Positions 1 through 4,980 of a stretch of DNA of 50,874 bases are shown here, piece by piece; position 1 is the first letter of the stretch; each line of letters starts with the position of its first letter. Source of the stretch: Mycobacteriales bacterium (GTDB lineage Bacteria; Actinomycetota; Actinomycetes; JAFAQI01; DASSKL01); contig DASSKL010000079.1 of assembly GCA_035690485.1 (NCBI GenBank), positions 1 through 50,874 of the forward strand, in the 5' to 3' direction. Below the pieces are notes generated by a model that saw nothing but the letters and a program-made list of their open reading frames with translations, ran no database searches and was not told where the DNA came from. Position numbers and translations under genes: made by a program.

Positions 1-1
1 C

Positions 2-1345
2 TCGAGGCTGCTGCTCGTCGCCGTCTCCAGCGGATCGGTACTCAACCCGCTGAACTCCTCGATGATCGCCGTGGCGCTCGTCGACATCACCCGTGCCTTC
101 AAGCTGTCGTTCGCCGGCGCGTCGTGGCTGATCTCCGCCTACTACCTGGCGAGTGCGGTGGGCCAGCCGGTGATGGGGCGGCTCGGTGACCTGATCGGCC
201 GGCGCCGGGTGTTCCTCGCCGGCCTCGTCGTGGTCGGCCTGTCGGGCCTCGCCGCCGCGGTCGCGCCGACGTTCGGCCTGCTGGTGGCCGCGCGTGTCGT
301 GCAGGCCTGCGGCAGCTCGGCTCTCTACCCCGCGGGCGTCGGCATCCTGCGCGAAGCCGACGTCGACCGGCGGGCACAGGCCCTGGGGGTGATGTCGATC
401 GTCGCGTCGGTCTCGGCCGCCATCGGTCCGACGATCGGCGGCGCCCTCGTCGGCTGGCAGGGCTGGCCGACGATCTTCCTCGTCAACCTGCCCGCCGTGG
501 CCGTCTCGCTGGCACTCGCGCTCATCGCGCTGCCGCGCGACGACCGGCCGTGGATCTCTCCGGCCGCCCTGCTGCGGCAGTTCGACCTCCCCGGTGCCGG
601 CTGCTTCTCGGCCGCGCTCGCGTTCCTGCTGGCCTTCCTCGTCTCCTTGCACGACAGCCCGGCCTGGTGGGCCCTGGGTCTCTCGATCCTCGCCGCCGTC
701 GTGCTCGGCTACGTCGAGCGCCGACGCGACCGGCCGTTCCTCGACCTCGCGGCGCTGCGGGCCAACCGCGTGCTGGTGGGCGTCTACGCAGGCCAGGCGC
801 TGGCGAACTTCGTCTTCTACGCGATCTTTTTCGGCATCCCGAGCTACCTGCAGGCCGCCCGCGGTGACGGCGCCGAGACCGCCGGACTGATCATGATGCC
901 GATCACCGTGCTCGCGGTCGTCACCACGCCGTTCGCGGCCCGCCTGGTCGACCGGCACGGCAGCCAGCTGGTGCTCTCGGCGGGCTCGGTGGCCCTCGTG
1001 GCGGGAGCACTGGTGCTTCTCGCCGTACGTCCGGGTCTCGCCGATGCCGGCATCGCGGGCCTGCTGGCGCTCACCGGCATCGGGGTCGGCTGCACCAACC
1101 TGGCCCTTCAGACGGCGATGTACGACGCCGCCCCGGCCGCCGAGATGGGAGCGGCCTCCGGGCTGTTCCAGACCGCCCGCTACATCGGCACCATGCTGGC
1201 GGCCGGCACCCTCGGCGTCGTCTTCGGCGAGCGCATCGACGCTGCGCAGCTGCACCAGCTGGCGCTCATCCTCGGCGCCGCCGCGGTCATGCTCACCGTC
1301 TCCACGCTGCGTCGCCCGCGGCCCGTGCGCCTCGCCCCGCGGTGA
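2..1345 (+). CDS. MFS drug/metabolite efflux transporter (5' end outside window)
   Basis: The open frame runs in from the left edge, so the true start is outside the window; the ATG at position 62 is internal, because the preceding codons read as a normal transporter N-terminus (...SGSVLNPLNSSMIAVAL). About 447 residues are visible. They form many hydrophobic helices with the MFS loop 2-3 signature (GRLGDLIGRRRVF) near residue 60 of the visible part and an RHGSQ-type loop in the second half. The family exports small molecules by proton antiport across the cytoplasmic membrane; the EmrB/QacA-like (DHA2) group is the best guess from the N-terminal sequence. The substrate cannot be read from sequence. 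It converges on the phosphotransferase gene, with only 10 bases between stop codons and no clear terminator. Confidence 0.85.
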   Translation, partial: SRLLLVAVSSGSVLNPLNSSMIAVALVDITRAFKLSFAGASWLISAYYLASAVGQPVMGRLGDLIGRRRVFLAGLVVVGLSGLAAAVAPTFGLLVAARVVQACGSSALYPAGVGILREADVDRRAQALGVMSIVASVSAAIGPTIGGALVGWQGWPTIFLVNLPAVAVSLALALIALPRDDRPWISPAALLRQFDLPGAGCFSAALAFLLAFLVSLHDSPAWWALGLSILAAVVLGYVERRRDRPFLDLAALRANRVLVGVYAGQALANFVFYAIFFGIPSYLQAARGDGAETAGLIMMPITVLAVVTTPFAARLVDRHGSQLVLSAGSVALVAGALVLLAVRPGLADAGIAGLLALTGIGVGCTNLALQTAMYDAAPAAEMGAASGLFQTARYIGTMLAAGTLGVVFGERIDAAQLHQLALILGAAAVMLTVSTLRRPRPVRLAPR

Positions 1346-1355
1346 GCTGTCGCGA

Positions 1356-2177
1356 TCAGAGAGTGGTCACCGGGCGGCACTGCAGCAGCCACAGCCGCCC
1401 GCCGGCGAAGGCCCACTCGATGTCCCGCGGCCCGTGGAACACCCGCGCGCACCGCTCGGCCAGCCGGTGCAGCGCGACGAGCTGCCCGTCGTCGAGGCAC
1501 AGCGCCTCGACCAGGTGCTCCGCCGTCGGCGTTTCGGCCGTGCCACCGTCGACGTCGAGCCGCACGGCGACGTCCTTGTAGCCCGGGTTCCGCTCGACCA
1601 CCGCGCCGGCGGTGTCCAGCCGGTACAGGTCCGGGGTCACGAGCCCCTGCACCACTGCCTCGCCGAGCCCCCACGCGGCCTCCACCACCCGCTCGTCCGC
1701 GCCGGTCACAGGGTTGCGGGTGAAGAGCACGCCCGCGACGTCGGCCGCGACGAGCTGCTGGACGACCACGGCGACCGACACGGTGGCCGGCAGCCCCATC
1801 CGGTCGCGGTAGGCCATGGCGCTCGGCGTACGCCCCGACTCCCACACCTCGCGCACGGCGCCCGCCACCGCGGCCGCGTCGGGTACGCCGAGGCAGGTGC
1901 GGTGCTGCCCGGCGAAGCTCGCGTCGGCGGCGTCCTCGTCGATCGCCGAGGAGCGTACGGCGAATGGTCCGCCCGCCAGCACCGGCCCGTCCAGCTCGCC
2001 GTCGGCGATCCGTTCCACGGTGGCCGCGTCGAGAGCAACCCCTTCGGGCACCGGCAGCCCGGCCCGGACGGCTGCCGCCAGCTGCGCGGCCTTGCCTCCG
2101 TAGCGCGCCGCGTCGGCGGCGTCGGTCAGCGGCACGGCCACCGCGGGGACGGCGGCCGTGTCCCTGTCAGCGGTCAT
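1356..2177 (-). CDS. ATP-grasp (PPDK_N-type) subunit of a split PEP-synthase-like phosphotransferase
   Basis: A 273-residue protein made of only the N-terminal ATP-binding module of PEP synthase or pyruvate phosphate dikinase. Visible motifs, in order, are GGKAAQLA near residue 27, AVRSSAIDEDA with SFAGQ near 73-90, GVLFTRNPVTG near 150, AWGLGEAVVQG near 170 and DIEWAF...LLQCRPVT at the C-terminus; these bind ATP and Mg. By family knowledge this module transfers the beta-phosphate of ATP to a histidine on a swivelling domain. That domain is in the upstream gene, whose TGA overlaps this ATG (ATGA), so translation is coupled. Longer upstream starts in this frame would run inside the partner gene and are rejected. 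The module is shorter than usual (about 330 residues). Substrate unknown. Confidence 0.85.
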   Translation of the reverse strand: MTADRDTAAVPAVAVPLTDAADAARYGGKAAQLAAAVRAGLPVPEGVALDAATVERIADGELDGPVLAGGPFAVRSSAIDEDAADASFAGQHRTCLGVPDAAAVAGAVREVWESGRTPSAMAYRDRMGLPATVSVAVVVQQLVAADVAGVLFTRNPVTGADERVVEAAWGLGEAVVQGLVTPDLYRLDTAGAVVERNPGYKDVAVRLDVDGGTAETPTAEHLVEALCLDDGQLVALHRLAERCARVFHGPRDIEWAFAGGRLWLLQCRPVTTL

Positions 2178-3829
2178 TCGAGGACGAGCACCTCGCCCGT
2201 GGTGCCGTTGACGCGCACCCTGGTGCCGTCGGCGATGAGCCGGCTCGCCTCGCGGGTGCCGACGACCGCCGGGATGCCGTACTCCCGCGCCACGATCGCC
2301 GGGTGCGACAGCAGGCCGCCGCGGTCGGTCACGATCGCCCCGAGCAGCGGCAGGATGATGTTGAAGGCCTCCGTCGTGCACGACGTGAGCAGCACGTCGC
2401 CGGGCTCGATCCGCCCGAAGTCCGCCGGGCTGCGCACCAGCCGGACGGTGCCCTCGTAGCTGCCGTTGCTGGCAGCGATGCCGGTGATCGACTCGGCGGT
2501 GTGGACGTGCTCGACCTCGGCGAACATGTTCATGATCACCGTTTGGACGGCAGCCGTGGCGCGGGCCATCGGTGGTGGCAGCAGCTCCAGCGGCGGGGGA
2601 GGAGCGGGCGGGTCACCCAGGTGGATCGGCACGTCGTCGGCATGCGCGGTCGCTCGCCAGTGCGCACGGGTCGCCACCTCGGCGGCGCTCGGGCCACCGG
2701 TGCCGCGCAGCATGGCGCAGAGCTCGTCGTAGGTGGCGTCCATCGCGTGCTCGGTCGCGAGCAGGGCGCCGCGCATGGCCAGGCGGGCGCCGACCGCGAG
2801 CACGACCCGTCGCACGATGCCGGCGGACCAGACGTCGCAGTAGAGGCCGCGCTCGTCGCGCAGCCGGTAGAGCAGCCGTGCCTCGGCCAGCAGCTCGTCG
2901 AACTCGGCGCGGTGCTCGGCCGGGACGGCTTCGCGCACCCGGTCCGTCGCCGCCTTCGTCGACTCGGCGTCGTCGACCGCGCGGGAGTCCGCGTCGAGCG
3001 CGGCGCGGATCCCGCGGAGCAGGATCTCCGGCTGCTCGAGCGCGTAGGGGTAACCGGGCTCGACGCTGTCGAGCAGTCGGTAACCGACCATGTCGACGTA
3101 CTCCCGGGCCGCCGCGCCGGCCGCCCCCGGGAGCGCGCAGAGCTCCTGCAGCGCCGCCGGGTCGTCGCGGTTGACCAGCGCCCGCGCGGTGTCGTCGCGT
3201 GCGATGGCGTCGAGCAGGGCGGCCATCTCGTCGGCGAGGCCGCTCGACACCGGTGAGGCGCCCTGGAGCAGGGCGAGGACCTCACTCGTGGACACCTCGG
3301 GTGCCCAGGCGCTCATGTGCGCGATCAGGTCTCCGACCGGCGTCATCGCCGCGCTGTTGAACGAGTGGTGGGTCTCGGCCATCTCGGCGAAGTGGTCGCG
3401 GCACACGGCCAGGTGCGCCAGCAGGCCGTCGTCGTCCAGCGTCGCGGGGTCGATCGCCTGCAGCTCCCGGTGCCGGGCGATGTTGCGCGGCTTCACCTCG
3501 GTGTCCCAGCGCTGCAGGTCGGCCCGCCAGCGCTTGGTGGCGAACGTCTCCGCGGCTGCCTCGATCCGCGCCGGGAACTCCGCCTCGGGGGCCGGCATCA
3601 GCCGGTGGTAGACGAACCCGTTGATCAGCGCGGCCTGCAGGCCGTTGATCGGCGCGCCGTAGCGGGAGAACGCCGAGCGCATGCCGCGGGTGAAGGCATC
3701 CGGCCAGAAGTCCGAGATGAAGTGGGCGACCGGCCGGCTCAGGTGGCTGCGGTCGAGCTCCCACGAGCCGGGGCCGGGCGCGACGAATGGCGGCAGCTCG
3801 GTCGACTGGCGCGTGGATTCCGTGGTCAT
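2174..3829 (-). CDS. Phosphohistidine-domain subunit of a split PEP-synthase-like phosphotransferase
   Basis: A 551-residue protein. Residues 1 to about 440 are a largely helical region with no motif I can name. The C-terminal ~100 residues are a PEP-utilizing mobile (swivelling) domain ending in GGLLSHPAIVAREYG with the candidate phospho-acceptor His509. No PEP/pyruvate-binding barrel follows, so with the downstream ATP-grasp subunit the module resembles rifampin phosphotransferase (ATP-grasp, substrate domain, His domain) or the two catalytic subunits of phenylphosphate synthase rather than PEP synthase. A proline-rich linker (PPAPPPPLELLPPP) lies near residue 410. The gene starts 80 bases from the divergent peptidase gene behind a GGGGGA Shine-Dalgarno-like run. 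Inference: it phosphorylates a small hydroxylated or aromatic compound. The identity of the substrate is not determinable here. Confidence 0.8.
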   Translation of the reverse strand: MTTESTRQSTELPPFVAPGPGSWELDRSHLSRPVAHFISDFWPDAFTRGMRSAFSRYGAPINGLQAALINGFVYHRLMPAPEAEFPARIEAAAETFATKRWRADLQRWDTEVKPRNIARHRELQAIDPATLDDDGLLAHLAVCRDHFAEMAETHHSFNSAAMTPVGDLIAHMSAWAPEVSTSEVLALLQGASPVSSGLADEMAALLDAIARDDTARALVNRDDPAALQELCALPGAAGAAAREYVDMVGYRLLDSVEPGYPYALEQPEILLRGIRAALDADSRAVDDAESTKAATDRVREAVPAEHRAEFDELLAEARLLYRLRDERGLYCDVWSAGIVRRVVLAVGARLAMRGALLATEHAMDATYDELCAMLRGTGGPSAAEVATRAHWRATAHADDVPIHLGDPPAPPPPLELLPPPMARATAAVQTVIMNMFAEVEHVHTAESITGIAASNGSYEGTVRLVRSPADFGRIEPGDVLLTSCTTEAFNIILPLLGAIVTDRGGLLSHPAIVAREYGIPAVVGTREASRLIADGTRVRVNGTTGEVLVLE

Positions 3830-3909
3830 GCGGGTCCCCCCTCGGACGGATCTGTGCCAGCATCCTGCGGTGCGTCGGTCCTGGCAATGAGAACGGGCAA
3901 GATGGGCCA

Positions 3910-4980
3910 GTGTCCGTCACCGAGTCCCGCCGCCGCCGGCTGGCGGCCGCGATCGCCGCTCTCGACCTCGATGCGCTGCTGGTGACCCGGCTGGTCAACG
4001 TGCGCTACCTCACCGGGTTCACCGGCTCCAACGGGGCTCTGCTGCTGCACTCCGACGGCCGCGTCGTGCTGGCCACCGACGGCCGTTACACGGAGCAGGC
4101 GCAGCAGCAGGCGCCCGACCTGCCGGTGCGCACCGACCGCAACGTCGTCGGCGCCCTCGCCACGGGCGCGTCCGGACGGCTCGGGTTCGAGGAGCACGAC
4201 CTCACGGTGTCGGCGTACGACGCCCTGCACGAGCAGCTGGCCGACAGCAGCACCGAACTGCGGCGCAGCGGGCAGCTCGTGGAGTCGCTCCGCCAGCACA
4301 AGGACGAGGACGAGGTGGCGACGCTCGCGCGTGCCGCCGCTGTCGCCGACCAGGCCCTGGCCGACTGCCTGCCGCGGATCAGGCCCGGCGTCACCGAGGC
4401 CGAGGTCGCCCGCGCCCTCGAGGACCGGATGCGCGACCTGGGTGCCGAGGCGCCGGCGTTCGACACGATCGTCGCGAGCGGGCCCAACGGCGCCATGCCG
4501 CACCACGGCGCCGCCGACCGTCCGCTGGCGACGGGCGATCTTGTGACGATCGACTTCGGCGCCCGGGTCGACGGCTACCACTCCGACATGACCCGGACCA
4601 TCGCCCTCGGCCCGGTGGCCGCGTGGCAGCAGGAGCTCTACGACCTGGTGCGGGAGGCGCAGCGGCAGGGCCGGCGGGCGCTCGCCGTCGGGGCCGAGAC
4701 CCGGGCGGTGGACGCCGCCGCGCGCGCCGTCATCGAGGCCGCCGGTCACGGCGCGAACTACCCGCACGGGCTCGGCCACGGGGTCGGGCTGGAGATCCAC
4801 GAAGCGCCGATGATCGGGTCCACGAGCACGGCTACACTCGACGAGGCAGTGCCCGTCACCGTCGAGCCGGGGGTCTACCTCCCGGGGCGCGGCGGTTGCC
4901 GCATCGAGGACACCCTCGTGGTCCGCGCGGACGGGCCGGAGCTGCTGACGACGACGACCAAGGACCTGCTGGTCCTGTGA
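3910..4980 (+). CDS. pepQ: M24 family metallopeptidase, Xaa-Pro aminopeptidase/dipeptidase type
   Basis: A cytosolic 356-residue creatinase-fold peptidase that removes residues next to proline. The N-terminal domain (about 1-125, with [17 protein letters not shown]) is typical of prolidases. The catalytic pita-bread domain shows the metal ligands in order: [18 protein letters not shown] (two Asp), [15 protein letters not shown] (His), [11 protein letters not shown] (Glu) and CRIEDTL (Glu). I chose the GTG at 3910, because the conserved region begins a few residues later and the longer upstream frame would reach into the divergent gene. It leads the pepQ-efp-nusB group, ending 16 bases before efp, the usual actinobacterial arrangement. 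The exact specificity (aminopeptidase versus dipeptidase) is not settled by sequence. Confidence 0.9.

What the first reader, a model, noticed from the sequence alone, without database searches (positions are those of the whole stretch)
1356..3829. Split, order-reversed PEP-synthase-like phosphotransferase without a PEP barrel
Seen: two ATGA-coupled genes hold a phosphohistidine swivelling domain (His509, upstream gene) and an ATP-grasp domain (downstream gene), with a large uncharacterised helical region but no PEP/pyruvate-binding barrel. Known: rifampin phosphotransferase fuses ATP-grasp, substrate and His domains; phenylphosphate synthase uses separate subunits. Inference: a two-subunit enzyme that phosphorylates a small molecule directly, possibly for antibiotic inactivation or aromatic activation. 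The neighbouring convergent MFS exporter may or may not be related.
Basis: partly seen in the sequence, partly recalled or inferred. Interest (0 to 1): 0.55.

Follow-up and report, generated by a model that had tools for sequence, protein, structure and literature searches.

The report
Split small-molecule kinase with export pump
Two overlapping genes encode the two halves of an enzyme related to rifampin phosphotransferase that most likely phosphorylates an unknown small molecule; relatives in several bacterial phyla often keep the pair beside a matching drug-type export pump, which points to detoxification or resistance rather than central metabolism.

Summary
In detail: gene A (2174-3829, minus; phosphohistidine swivel domain, His509) overlaps gene B (1356-2177, minus; ATP-grasp) at ATGA, and no PEP-barrel gene lies beside them. 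The split is already known (PpsAB, CreHI, HpeHI), and a PpsA-PpsB locus has the same gene order. The "uncharacterised" helical region is not an orphan: a confident model of A matches the rifampin-binding plus His domains of RPH along its whole length (Z 23.4, rmsd 5.3, 487 residues), and B matches ATP-grasp domains of RPH and PEP synthase (Z about 30).

New here: A-B belong to a separate clade for which I found no description (24-25% identical to PpsA and CreH-like proteins), present in several phyla. Of 61 loci, 32 have a DHA2-like MFS gene, 14 a cyclic-nucleotide-binding domain on or beside B, 11 a TetR-type regulator, and 4 none; no locus has two of these. MFS and A distances correlate (Mantel r 0.91, 28 loci). 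The window's convergent MFS is such a partner.

Best reading: a two-component small-molecule dikinase acting with an exporter to inactivate and expel a hydroxylated compound. Mechanism is by homology; role is inferred; substrate is unknown.

The parts
2174..3829 (-). Gene A, 551 aa: RPH-like helical substrate-binding domain plus C-terminal phosphohistidine swivel domain
   Evidence: AlphaFold2 pLDDT 92.5, pTM 0.91; RPH match Z 23.4, rmsd 5.3, 487 aligned
2540..3766 (-). A residues 22-430: helical substrate-binding region, homologous to PpsA/CreH and to the RPH rifampin-binding domain
   Evidence: hhalign columns 22-551 against PpsA/CreH profile E 9.8e-55, 127-551 against Rph E 1e-31; 5hv2 aligns model 13-407 with chain 317-747, Z 15.3
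2195..2410 (-). A residues 474-545: swivelling phosphohistidine domain PF00391
   Evidence: E 6.9e-20
2303..2305 (-). Codon of His509, predicted phosphoryl carrier
   Evidence: H in 51 of 51 aligned A proteins
1356..2177 (-). Gene B, 273 aa: compact stand-alone ATP-grasp subunit
   Evidence: PF01326 E 2.3e-62; pLDDT 92.8; RPH ATP-grasp Z 30.3, PEP synthase Z 29.6, HpeI Z 23.9
2091..2093 (-). Codon of Lys29 of B, aligned with RPH Lys22
   Evidence: invariant in 43 of 43 B proteins; alignment
1953..1955 (-). Codon of Arg75 of B, aligned with RPH Arg117
   Evidence: invariant in 43 of 43 B proteins; alignment
2174..2177 (-). ATGA overlap of the stop codon of A and the start codon of B
   Evidence: sequence
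2..1345 (+). DHA2-like MFS gene, convergent with A-B, cut by the contig start; homologous to MFS genes beside A in relatives
   Evidence: MFS_1 E 1.3e-53; efflux_EmrB 149 bits, below its cut-off of 230; 33-35% identical to the MFS proteins of L034, L035, L037, L038, up to 36% (L056)

Best explanation
A two-component small-molecule dikinase that works like a split rifampin phosphotransferase. B binds ATP in its ATP-grasp domain and hands the beta-phosphate to His509 of A; the swivel domain of A then turns to A's own helical pocket and puts the phosphate on a hydroxyl of a small molecule, releasing AMP and Pi. In cells the unit is most likely for detoxification or resistance: the compound is inactivated or trapped by phosphorylation, and the co-evolving MFS pump expels the compound or its phosphate. 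Shown by computation: domains, folds, conserved catalytic positions, the A-B pairing, the MFS association. Inferred: the chemistry (homology to RPH and HpeHI), the detoxification role, the direction of transport. Unknown: the substrate.
For: Domains. A aligns over its length with the RIF-binding plus His domains of RPH (Z 23.4) and with PpsA/CreH profiles (E 9.8e-55); B with the RPH ATP-grasp (Z 30.3) and HpeI (Z 23.9). His509 in 51 of 51 A proteins, Lys29 and Arg75 in 43 of 43 B proteins. A-B directly paired in 54 of 61 loci and distances correlated at r 0.86 over 52 loci. An MFS of one subfamily near A in 32 of 61 loci, 33 matched stretches (31 loci) in 369 kb close to A against 2 in 436 kb farther off; A-MFS distances r 0.91 over 28 loci, 0 of 5000 permutations as high. 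TetR-type regulators upstream in 11 of 61. A Pfam tally of 148 neighbours shows no recurring aromatic-catabolism family among the 25 of 178 families listed.
Against: Every characterised two-component relative in the papers I read is catabolic (PMC12167813, PMC9618137). Only 32 of 61 loci have the MFS, and 29 do not. The MFS model was built from 5 of these loci and recognises this subfamily only, so the near/far count is not a control for MFS genes in general. In the window the MFS is on the opposite strand, so not in one operon. L034, L035 and L084 have A and MFS without B beside them. A P450-like gene occurs near A in 3 loci (L058, L075, L086; named by eye), and P450 is part of the cre-type operon L122. 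No substrate, no activity, no phenotype. The MFS scores below the EmrB cut-off. The fold match of A to RPH has a large rmsd (5.3 A).
Confidence: 0.58

Rival explanations
1. A catabolic activation kinase: like PpsAB, CreHI and HpeHI it phosphorylates a phenolic compound as the first step of its breakdown, and the MFS imports the substrate.
For: Nearest characterised two-component enzymes are catabolic (PMC12167813, PMC9618137); A is homologous to PpsA and the CreH-like protein over its full length; a P450-like gene lies near A in 3 loci.
Against: The pathway genes beside the PpsA and CreH-like loci do not recur beside A: clusters found in 3 or more loci are A, B, MFS, TetR, an SDR-like and an ABC-type family at scattered distances, cNMP, P450 (3 loci) and a response regulator (3 loci). 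Only 24-25% identity to PpsA and CreH-like, separate clade. No UbiD in the own genome, which bears on the Pps route only.
Confidence: 0.2
2. A biosynthetic enzyme of a natural product: a tailoring phosphorylation or, as in prodigiosin ligases RedH/PigC, an ATP-driven condensation, with the MFS exporting the product.
For: RedH and PigC share the same domains (A 79.6 and 60.4 bits, B 178.5 and 169.4 bits); drug-type MFS; several relatives are in producer genera (Streptomyces, Sorangium).
Against: No recurring biosynthetic neighbours in the cluster list or in the 25 families shown; all scores far below the 1350 and 1300 bit cut-offs. The neighbourhoods were only 8 kb on each side.
Confidence: 0.13
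3. A protein or phosphorelay kinase, like VadK (Rv1127c) of Mycobacterium tuberculosis, in which the swivel His passes phosphate to another protein.
For: VadK is a barrel-less PPDK relative acting as a histidine kinase (PMC13400623, passages); 14 of 61 loci carry a cyclic-nucleotide-binding domain.
Against: VadK has no separate substrate domain by its description, whereas A has a full RPH-type substrate domain.
Confidence: 0.06
4. An ordinary PEP synthase or PPDK in pieces, completed by a barrel protein elsewhere.
For: ATP-grasp and swivel domains are shared with PEP synthase (B matches 2ols at Z 29.6); the genome has two PF02896 barrels.
Against: Those barrels sit in frames of 904 and 578 aa on other contigs. 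A has its own RPH-type substrate domain. PEP synthase's Thr two residues before the catalytic His is Leu507 here (L in 48 of 51). BLAST with one barrel found none in the 61 loci (a weak test without positive control).
Confidence: 0.03

Closest known systems
HpeHI, hydroxyphenylethanone dikinase of Rhodococcus rhodochrous GD02 (PMC12167813; HpeI = PDB 9GOJ)
   Same: Two separate proteins; ATP-grasp subunit plus substrate-and-swivel subunit; T/S-x-x-G-G-x-x-x-H motif; B matches 9goj at Z 23.9
   Different: HpeH was not in hand for the tree; pathway genes hpeCBADEF have no counterpart seen beside A; B lacks a stretch of some 40-60 residues that PpsB and CreI have (not compared with HpeI itself)
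PpsAB, phenylphosphate synthase (here the Azoarcus sp. KH32C locus L121, named by its phenylphosphate carboxylase neighbours)
   Same: Same split and same gene order; A 24% identical over the length (E 1.6e-29), B 36% over 216 residues
   Different: Separate clade; PpsAB sits with a CBS-domain gene and ppcBDAG, absent here
CreHI, 4-methylphenol kinase (here a CreHI-like pair of Rhodococcus oxybenzonivorans, L122, named by its P450 operon)
   Same: Same split; A 25% (E 4.4e-29), B 40% over 210 residues
   Different: B gene precedes A gene there; separate clade
RPH, rifampin phosphotransferase (PMC4844700; PDB 5FBT, 5HV1; Streptomyces Rph in L125)
   Same: The same three domains; A fold Z 23.4, B fold Z 30.3; B 44% identical over 207 residues to Rph
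   Different: One chain of about 870 aa there, two here; scores 89.6 (A) and 170 (B) bits against the family cut-off of 999; no RAE-like element upstream
PRK08296 models of NCBIfam (NF006149-NF006153, hypothetical proteins)
   Same: Best NCBIfam hits of A (125.3 bits for NF006153)
   Different: Far below the curated cut-offs (578-730 bits); function not given

Membership tests
Two-component small-molecule dikinases (kind of PpsAB, CreHI, HpeHI) | ATP-grasp on one protein, substrate plus swivel domain on another | tested here: met
Two-component small-molecule dikinases (kind of PpsAB, CreHI, HpeHI) | Phospho-accepting His in T/S-x-x-G-G-x-x-x-H | tested here: met
   T501...H509; His in 51 of 51; motif as given in PMC12167813
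Two-component small-molecule dikinases (kind of PpsAB, CreHI, HpeHI) | AMP-forming phosphorylation of a small molecule, both subunits needed | not testable with these tools
   needs an assay
PpsA/CreH/HpeH clade itself (phenolic kinases) | About 45% pairwise identity and placement inside that clade | tested here: not met
   24-25% to PpsA and CreH-like; separate clade; HpeH itself not on the tree
PpsA/CreH/HpeH clade itself (phenolic kinases) | Phenolic substrate | not testable with these tools
   needs an assay
RPH (NF041857) | Score over the curated cut-off as one polypeptide | tested here: not met
   89.6 and 170 bits against 999
RPH (NF041857) | RIF-binding domain fold | tested here: met
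   Z 23.4 over model 1-551 and Z 15.3 over 13-407
RPH (NF041857) | Catalytic Arg666-Glu667 of the substrate domain | tested here: inconclusive
   A conserved R-x-R-D-E-R cluster (322-327) lies there, but the register is uncertain by two residues
PEP synthase / PPDK | PEP/pyruvate-binding barrel in the enzyme or next to it | tested here: not met
   No barrel domain in A or B or beside them
PEP synthase / PPDK | Regulatory Thr two residues before the catalytic His | tested here: not met
   Leu507; L in 48 of 51
RedH/PigC prodiginine ligases (NF052632, NF052631) | Score over the curated cut-off | tested here: not met
   A 79.6 and 60.4, B 178.5 and 169.4 bits against 1350 and 1300

The most novel reading that the evidence does not exclude
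A widespread, undescribed family of phosphorylate-and-export units: a split RPH-type dikinase and a dedicated DHA2-like pump that have evolved together across several phyla and give tolerance to a class of natural hydroxylated toxins or antibiotics not yet known to be inactivated by phosphorylation, with a sister branch in which a cyclic nucleotide gates the same kinase through a domain attached to or beside its ATP-grasp subunit.
Probability: 0.33. Interest if true: 0.75.

Novelty: new variant of a known kind. Interest (0 to 1): 0.5.

Why it matters
RPH is an antibiotic-resistance dikinase, and its discoverers suggested that its relatives form a large unexplored group of small-molecule dikinases (PMC4844700, passages). 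This clade is a concrete candidate for a new resistance or detoxification enzyme: it occurs in several phyla, one copy is on a Streptomyces plasmid (1 of 221 matching plasmid records covers most of A), and about half of the loci have a pump whose distances follow those of the kinase. That pairing gives a direct way to test the role and look for the substrate. The variant with a cyclic-nucleotide-binding domain would be a dikinase controlled by a cyclic nucleotide; the searches showed no description of one.

Tried and rejected
Viral contigs: one scan, no relative. Close-range conservation could not be tested: the family holds only the own genome and the order 13 genomes, of which only the own one has a full-length match. 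The other hit in the order (G006) groups with the PpsA/CreH clade.

Rifamycin link: a 19-base RAE-like element (recalled) was sought in up to 500 bp upstream of 61 A genes at up to 4 mismatches, a few with little sequence upstream (for example L082, L084, L091): none. The Rph control locus L125 gave a site with 2 mismatches upstream of rph. This does not exclude rifamycins as a substrate.

Promoter and terminator scan of 1200-4000: nothing. UbiD in the own genome: none, while 9 of 14 control genomes have it. Barrel BLAST in 61 loci: none, single query, no positive control. Mapping RPH Arg666-Glu667 onto A: register uncertain, left open. L126 (Variovorax WDL1) and L123 (Rhodococcus) are other swivel-domain contexts. 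Papers: searches; one search returned no paper and only unrelated ones. In the fold searches, no structure other than RPH covered the N-terminal part of A; that is no proof of absence.
Full report
What is in the window. Gene A (2174-3829, minus, 551 aa) ends in a phosphohistidine swivel domain (PF00391, residues 474-545); gene B (1356-2177, minus, 273 aa) is an ATP-grasp protein (PF01326, residues 71-272). They overlap at ATGA. The window is the whole contig C79 of a 3.13-Mb, 102-contig genome. The convergent MFS gene runs into the contig start; its match covers model positions 7-449 of 449, so few residues are missing. On the other side lies a divergent run of genes with no evident link.

The helical region is not an orphan. 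A profile of window-clade A proteins (46 of 49 rows used) aligns with a PpsA/CreH profile of 25 proteins over residues 22-551 (E 9.8e-55, 21% identity, 514 columns) and with an Rph sequence over 127-551 (E 1e-31). AlphaFold2 gives A a pLDDT of 92.5 and pTM 0.91. The best structural matches are RPH: 5fbt, Z 23.4, rmsd 5.3, 487 residues, model 1-551 on chain 305-867; 5hv2, model 13-407 on chain 317-747, Z 15.3, is the rifampin-binding part alone. B (pLDDT 92.8) matches the RPH ATP-grasp (Z 30.3), PEP synthase 2ols (Z 29.6, a tie) and HpeI 9goj (Z 23.9). So A plus B hold the three domains of RPH, cut between ATP-grasp and substrate domain. PMC12167813 (parts 1-4 of 6 read; passages) describes the same cut for HpeHI and names CreHI and PpsAB as homologues. 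The architectural surprise is therefore known; the locus I take for PpsA-PpsB has the same gene order, the CreHI-like one the opposite.

Catalytic positions. His509 is H in 51 of 51 aligned A proteins, in T-x-x-G-G-x-x-x-H. Lys29, Arg75, Glu254, Gln266 and Arg268 of B are invariant in 43 of 43. Lys29, Arg75 and Thr94 align with RPH Lys22, Arg117 and Thr136, which mutation showed to matter in RPH (PMC4844700, passages); position 94 is Ser in L053. B lacks a stretch of some 40-60 residues present in Rph, PpsB and CreI between the first two ATP-grasp blocks. The regulatory Thr of PEP synthase before the His is Leu507 (L in 48 of 51).

A separate clade. In a class sample 63 of 393 genomes match at E 1e-20 or better, but besides the own genome only 7 have full-length matches, at 45-48% identity. 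A scan of one genome per species kept 80 loci of 550 relatives; I took L041-L093 as window-like and L094-L120 as more distant, L092 and L093 being outliers. The organisms include Actinomycetota, Pseudomonadota, Myxococcota, Cyanobacteriota, Acidobacteriota and candidate division FCPU426. On a tree of 97 proteins the window clade (56 rows, support 99) is apart from the 25-row clade with PpsA and the CreH-like protein (support 100, branch 1.42). This is a quick tree with one kind of support, midpoint rooted, weak at the deepest forks, with several long branches; the window's own place within its 17-row group is unresolved, and HpeH is not on it. Gene and species relationships disagree (Variovorax, Geodermatophilus and cyanobacteria each fall in more than one place), which suggests transfer. 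One copy is on a Streptomyces plasmid, the only one of 221 matching plasmid records where most of A is covered.

Three partners. Among 61 loci, window included, B lies directly downstream of A on the same strand in 54, upstream in 1 (L093), and is not seen in 6 (L034, L035, L084, L087, L089 and L090, the last cut by a contig end). An MFS gene lies within 4.5 kb (midpoints) in 32, on the same strand in 31 of these; the window is the exception. A cyclic-nucleotide-binding domain lies on or directly after B in 14 (9 in the same reading frame, 5 in another). A TetR-type regulator lies upstream in 11, found with a model built from 8 of these loci. Four have none of the three. No locus has two. After removal of two duplicate contigs: 14 cNMP only, 31 MFS only, 14 neither, 0 both (Fisher p 3e-6; loci are not independent). 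On the tree the three states need 4 changes over 55 labelled rows, so the exclusivity is largely inherited.

Is the MFS association real? With a model built from 5 of the MFS genes, 33 matched stretches (31 loci) lie in 369 kb close to A and 2 in 436 kb farther away in the same loci. This speaks for this MFS subfamily, not MFS genes at large. Distances between A proteins and between their MFS proteins correlate at r 0.91 (28 loci, 0 of 5000 permutations as high); A and B at r 0.86 (52 loci). The window's MFS is 33-35% identical to four of those MFS proteins and at most 36% to any (L056). The cNMP domain keeps an FGE...R-x-AT cassette in 14 of 14, where CRP-type proteins bind the cyclic nucleotide (recalled).

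What it probably does. By homology: ATP on B, beta-phosphate to His509 of A, then to a hydroxyl in A's helical pocket. The role is inferred. Pathway genes seen beside the PpsAB and CreHI-like loci do not recur here. Clusters present in 3 or more loci are A, B, MFS (27), TetR (10), an SDR-like family (8) and an ABC-type family (6) at scattered distances, a cNMP gene (5), a P450-like family (3: L058, L075, L086) and a response regulator (3) (family names by eye except MFS, TetR and cNMP). A Pfam tally of 148 of 170 chosen neighbours gives TetR 8, overlapping methyltransferase models up to 5 each, and small counts otherwise; 25 of 178 families were shown. The own genome has no UbiD. A kinase with a drug-type MFS or a TetR, scattered across phyla, fits detoxification or resistance better than catabolism. 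Catabolism remains the main rival, because each characterised two-component relative in the papers read is catabolic. Nothing points to rifamycins in particular.

Open points. L034, L035 and L084 have A and MFS without B beside them; in G024 and G046 the only ATP-grasp matches at E 1e-15 lie in long frames of 931 and 1173 aa. Whether these A proteins borrow a partner is unknown. The paper searches showed no description of this clade; most subscription papers are not held. PMC13400623, PMC9618137 and PMC4844700 were seen as passages, PMC13099321 only in listings.

Verdict. Observation confirmed, interpretation partly supported; a new variant, with its own partners, of a known kind. Interest 0.5: strong association evidence that is easy to test, but role and substrate are untested.

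Noticed in passing
L034, L035 (G024, G046) and L084: A and the MFS gene without a stand-alone ATP-grasp gene beside them; in G024 (one contig) and G046 the only ATP-grasp matches lie in long frames of 931 and 1173 aa.
   Followed up: partly
L032 10408-11646, L033 353-1621, and L041, L042, L044-L049, L051, L052, L064, L088: 14 loci where B carries, or is directly followed by, a cyclic-nucleotide-binding domain with the FGE...R-x-AT cassette in 14 of 14: a possible cyclic-nucleotide-controlled dikinase.
   Followed up: partly
L040 4261-6759, 6831-7505, 1535-3715: A one-chain relative (832 aa, ATP-grasp first, swivel last) with a divergent TetR gene and an MMPL transporter gene nearby.
   Followed up: no
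L123 6116-7354 and 10765-12156: Rhodococcus plasmid with a short swivel-domain gene (412 aa) and a separate gene annotated as dikinase among acyl-CoA dehydrogenase genes.
   Followed up: no
L126 1962-4309: Variovorax plasmid with ATP-grasp, an unnamed protein and a swivel domain annotated as three consecutive genes: either a three-way split or a broken gene.
   Followed up: no
L094, L097, L099, L100: A tight Desulfosporosinus/Peptococcaceae group of split dikinases, 24% identical to A in the two aligned, apart from both the window clade and the PpsA/CreH clade.
   Followed up: no
window 1-62: The MFS reading frame runs off the contig start; the ATG at 62 listed by the ORF finder is probably internal.
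   Followed up: yes
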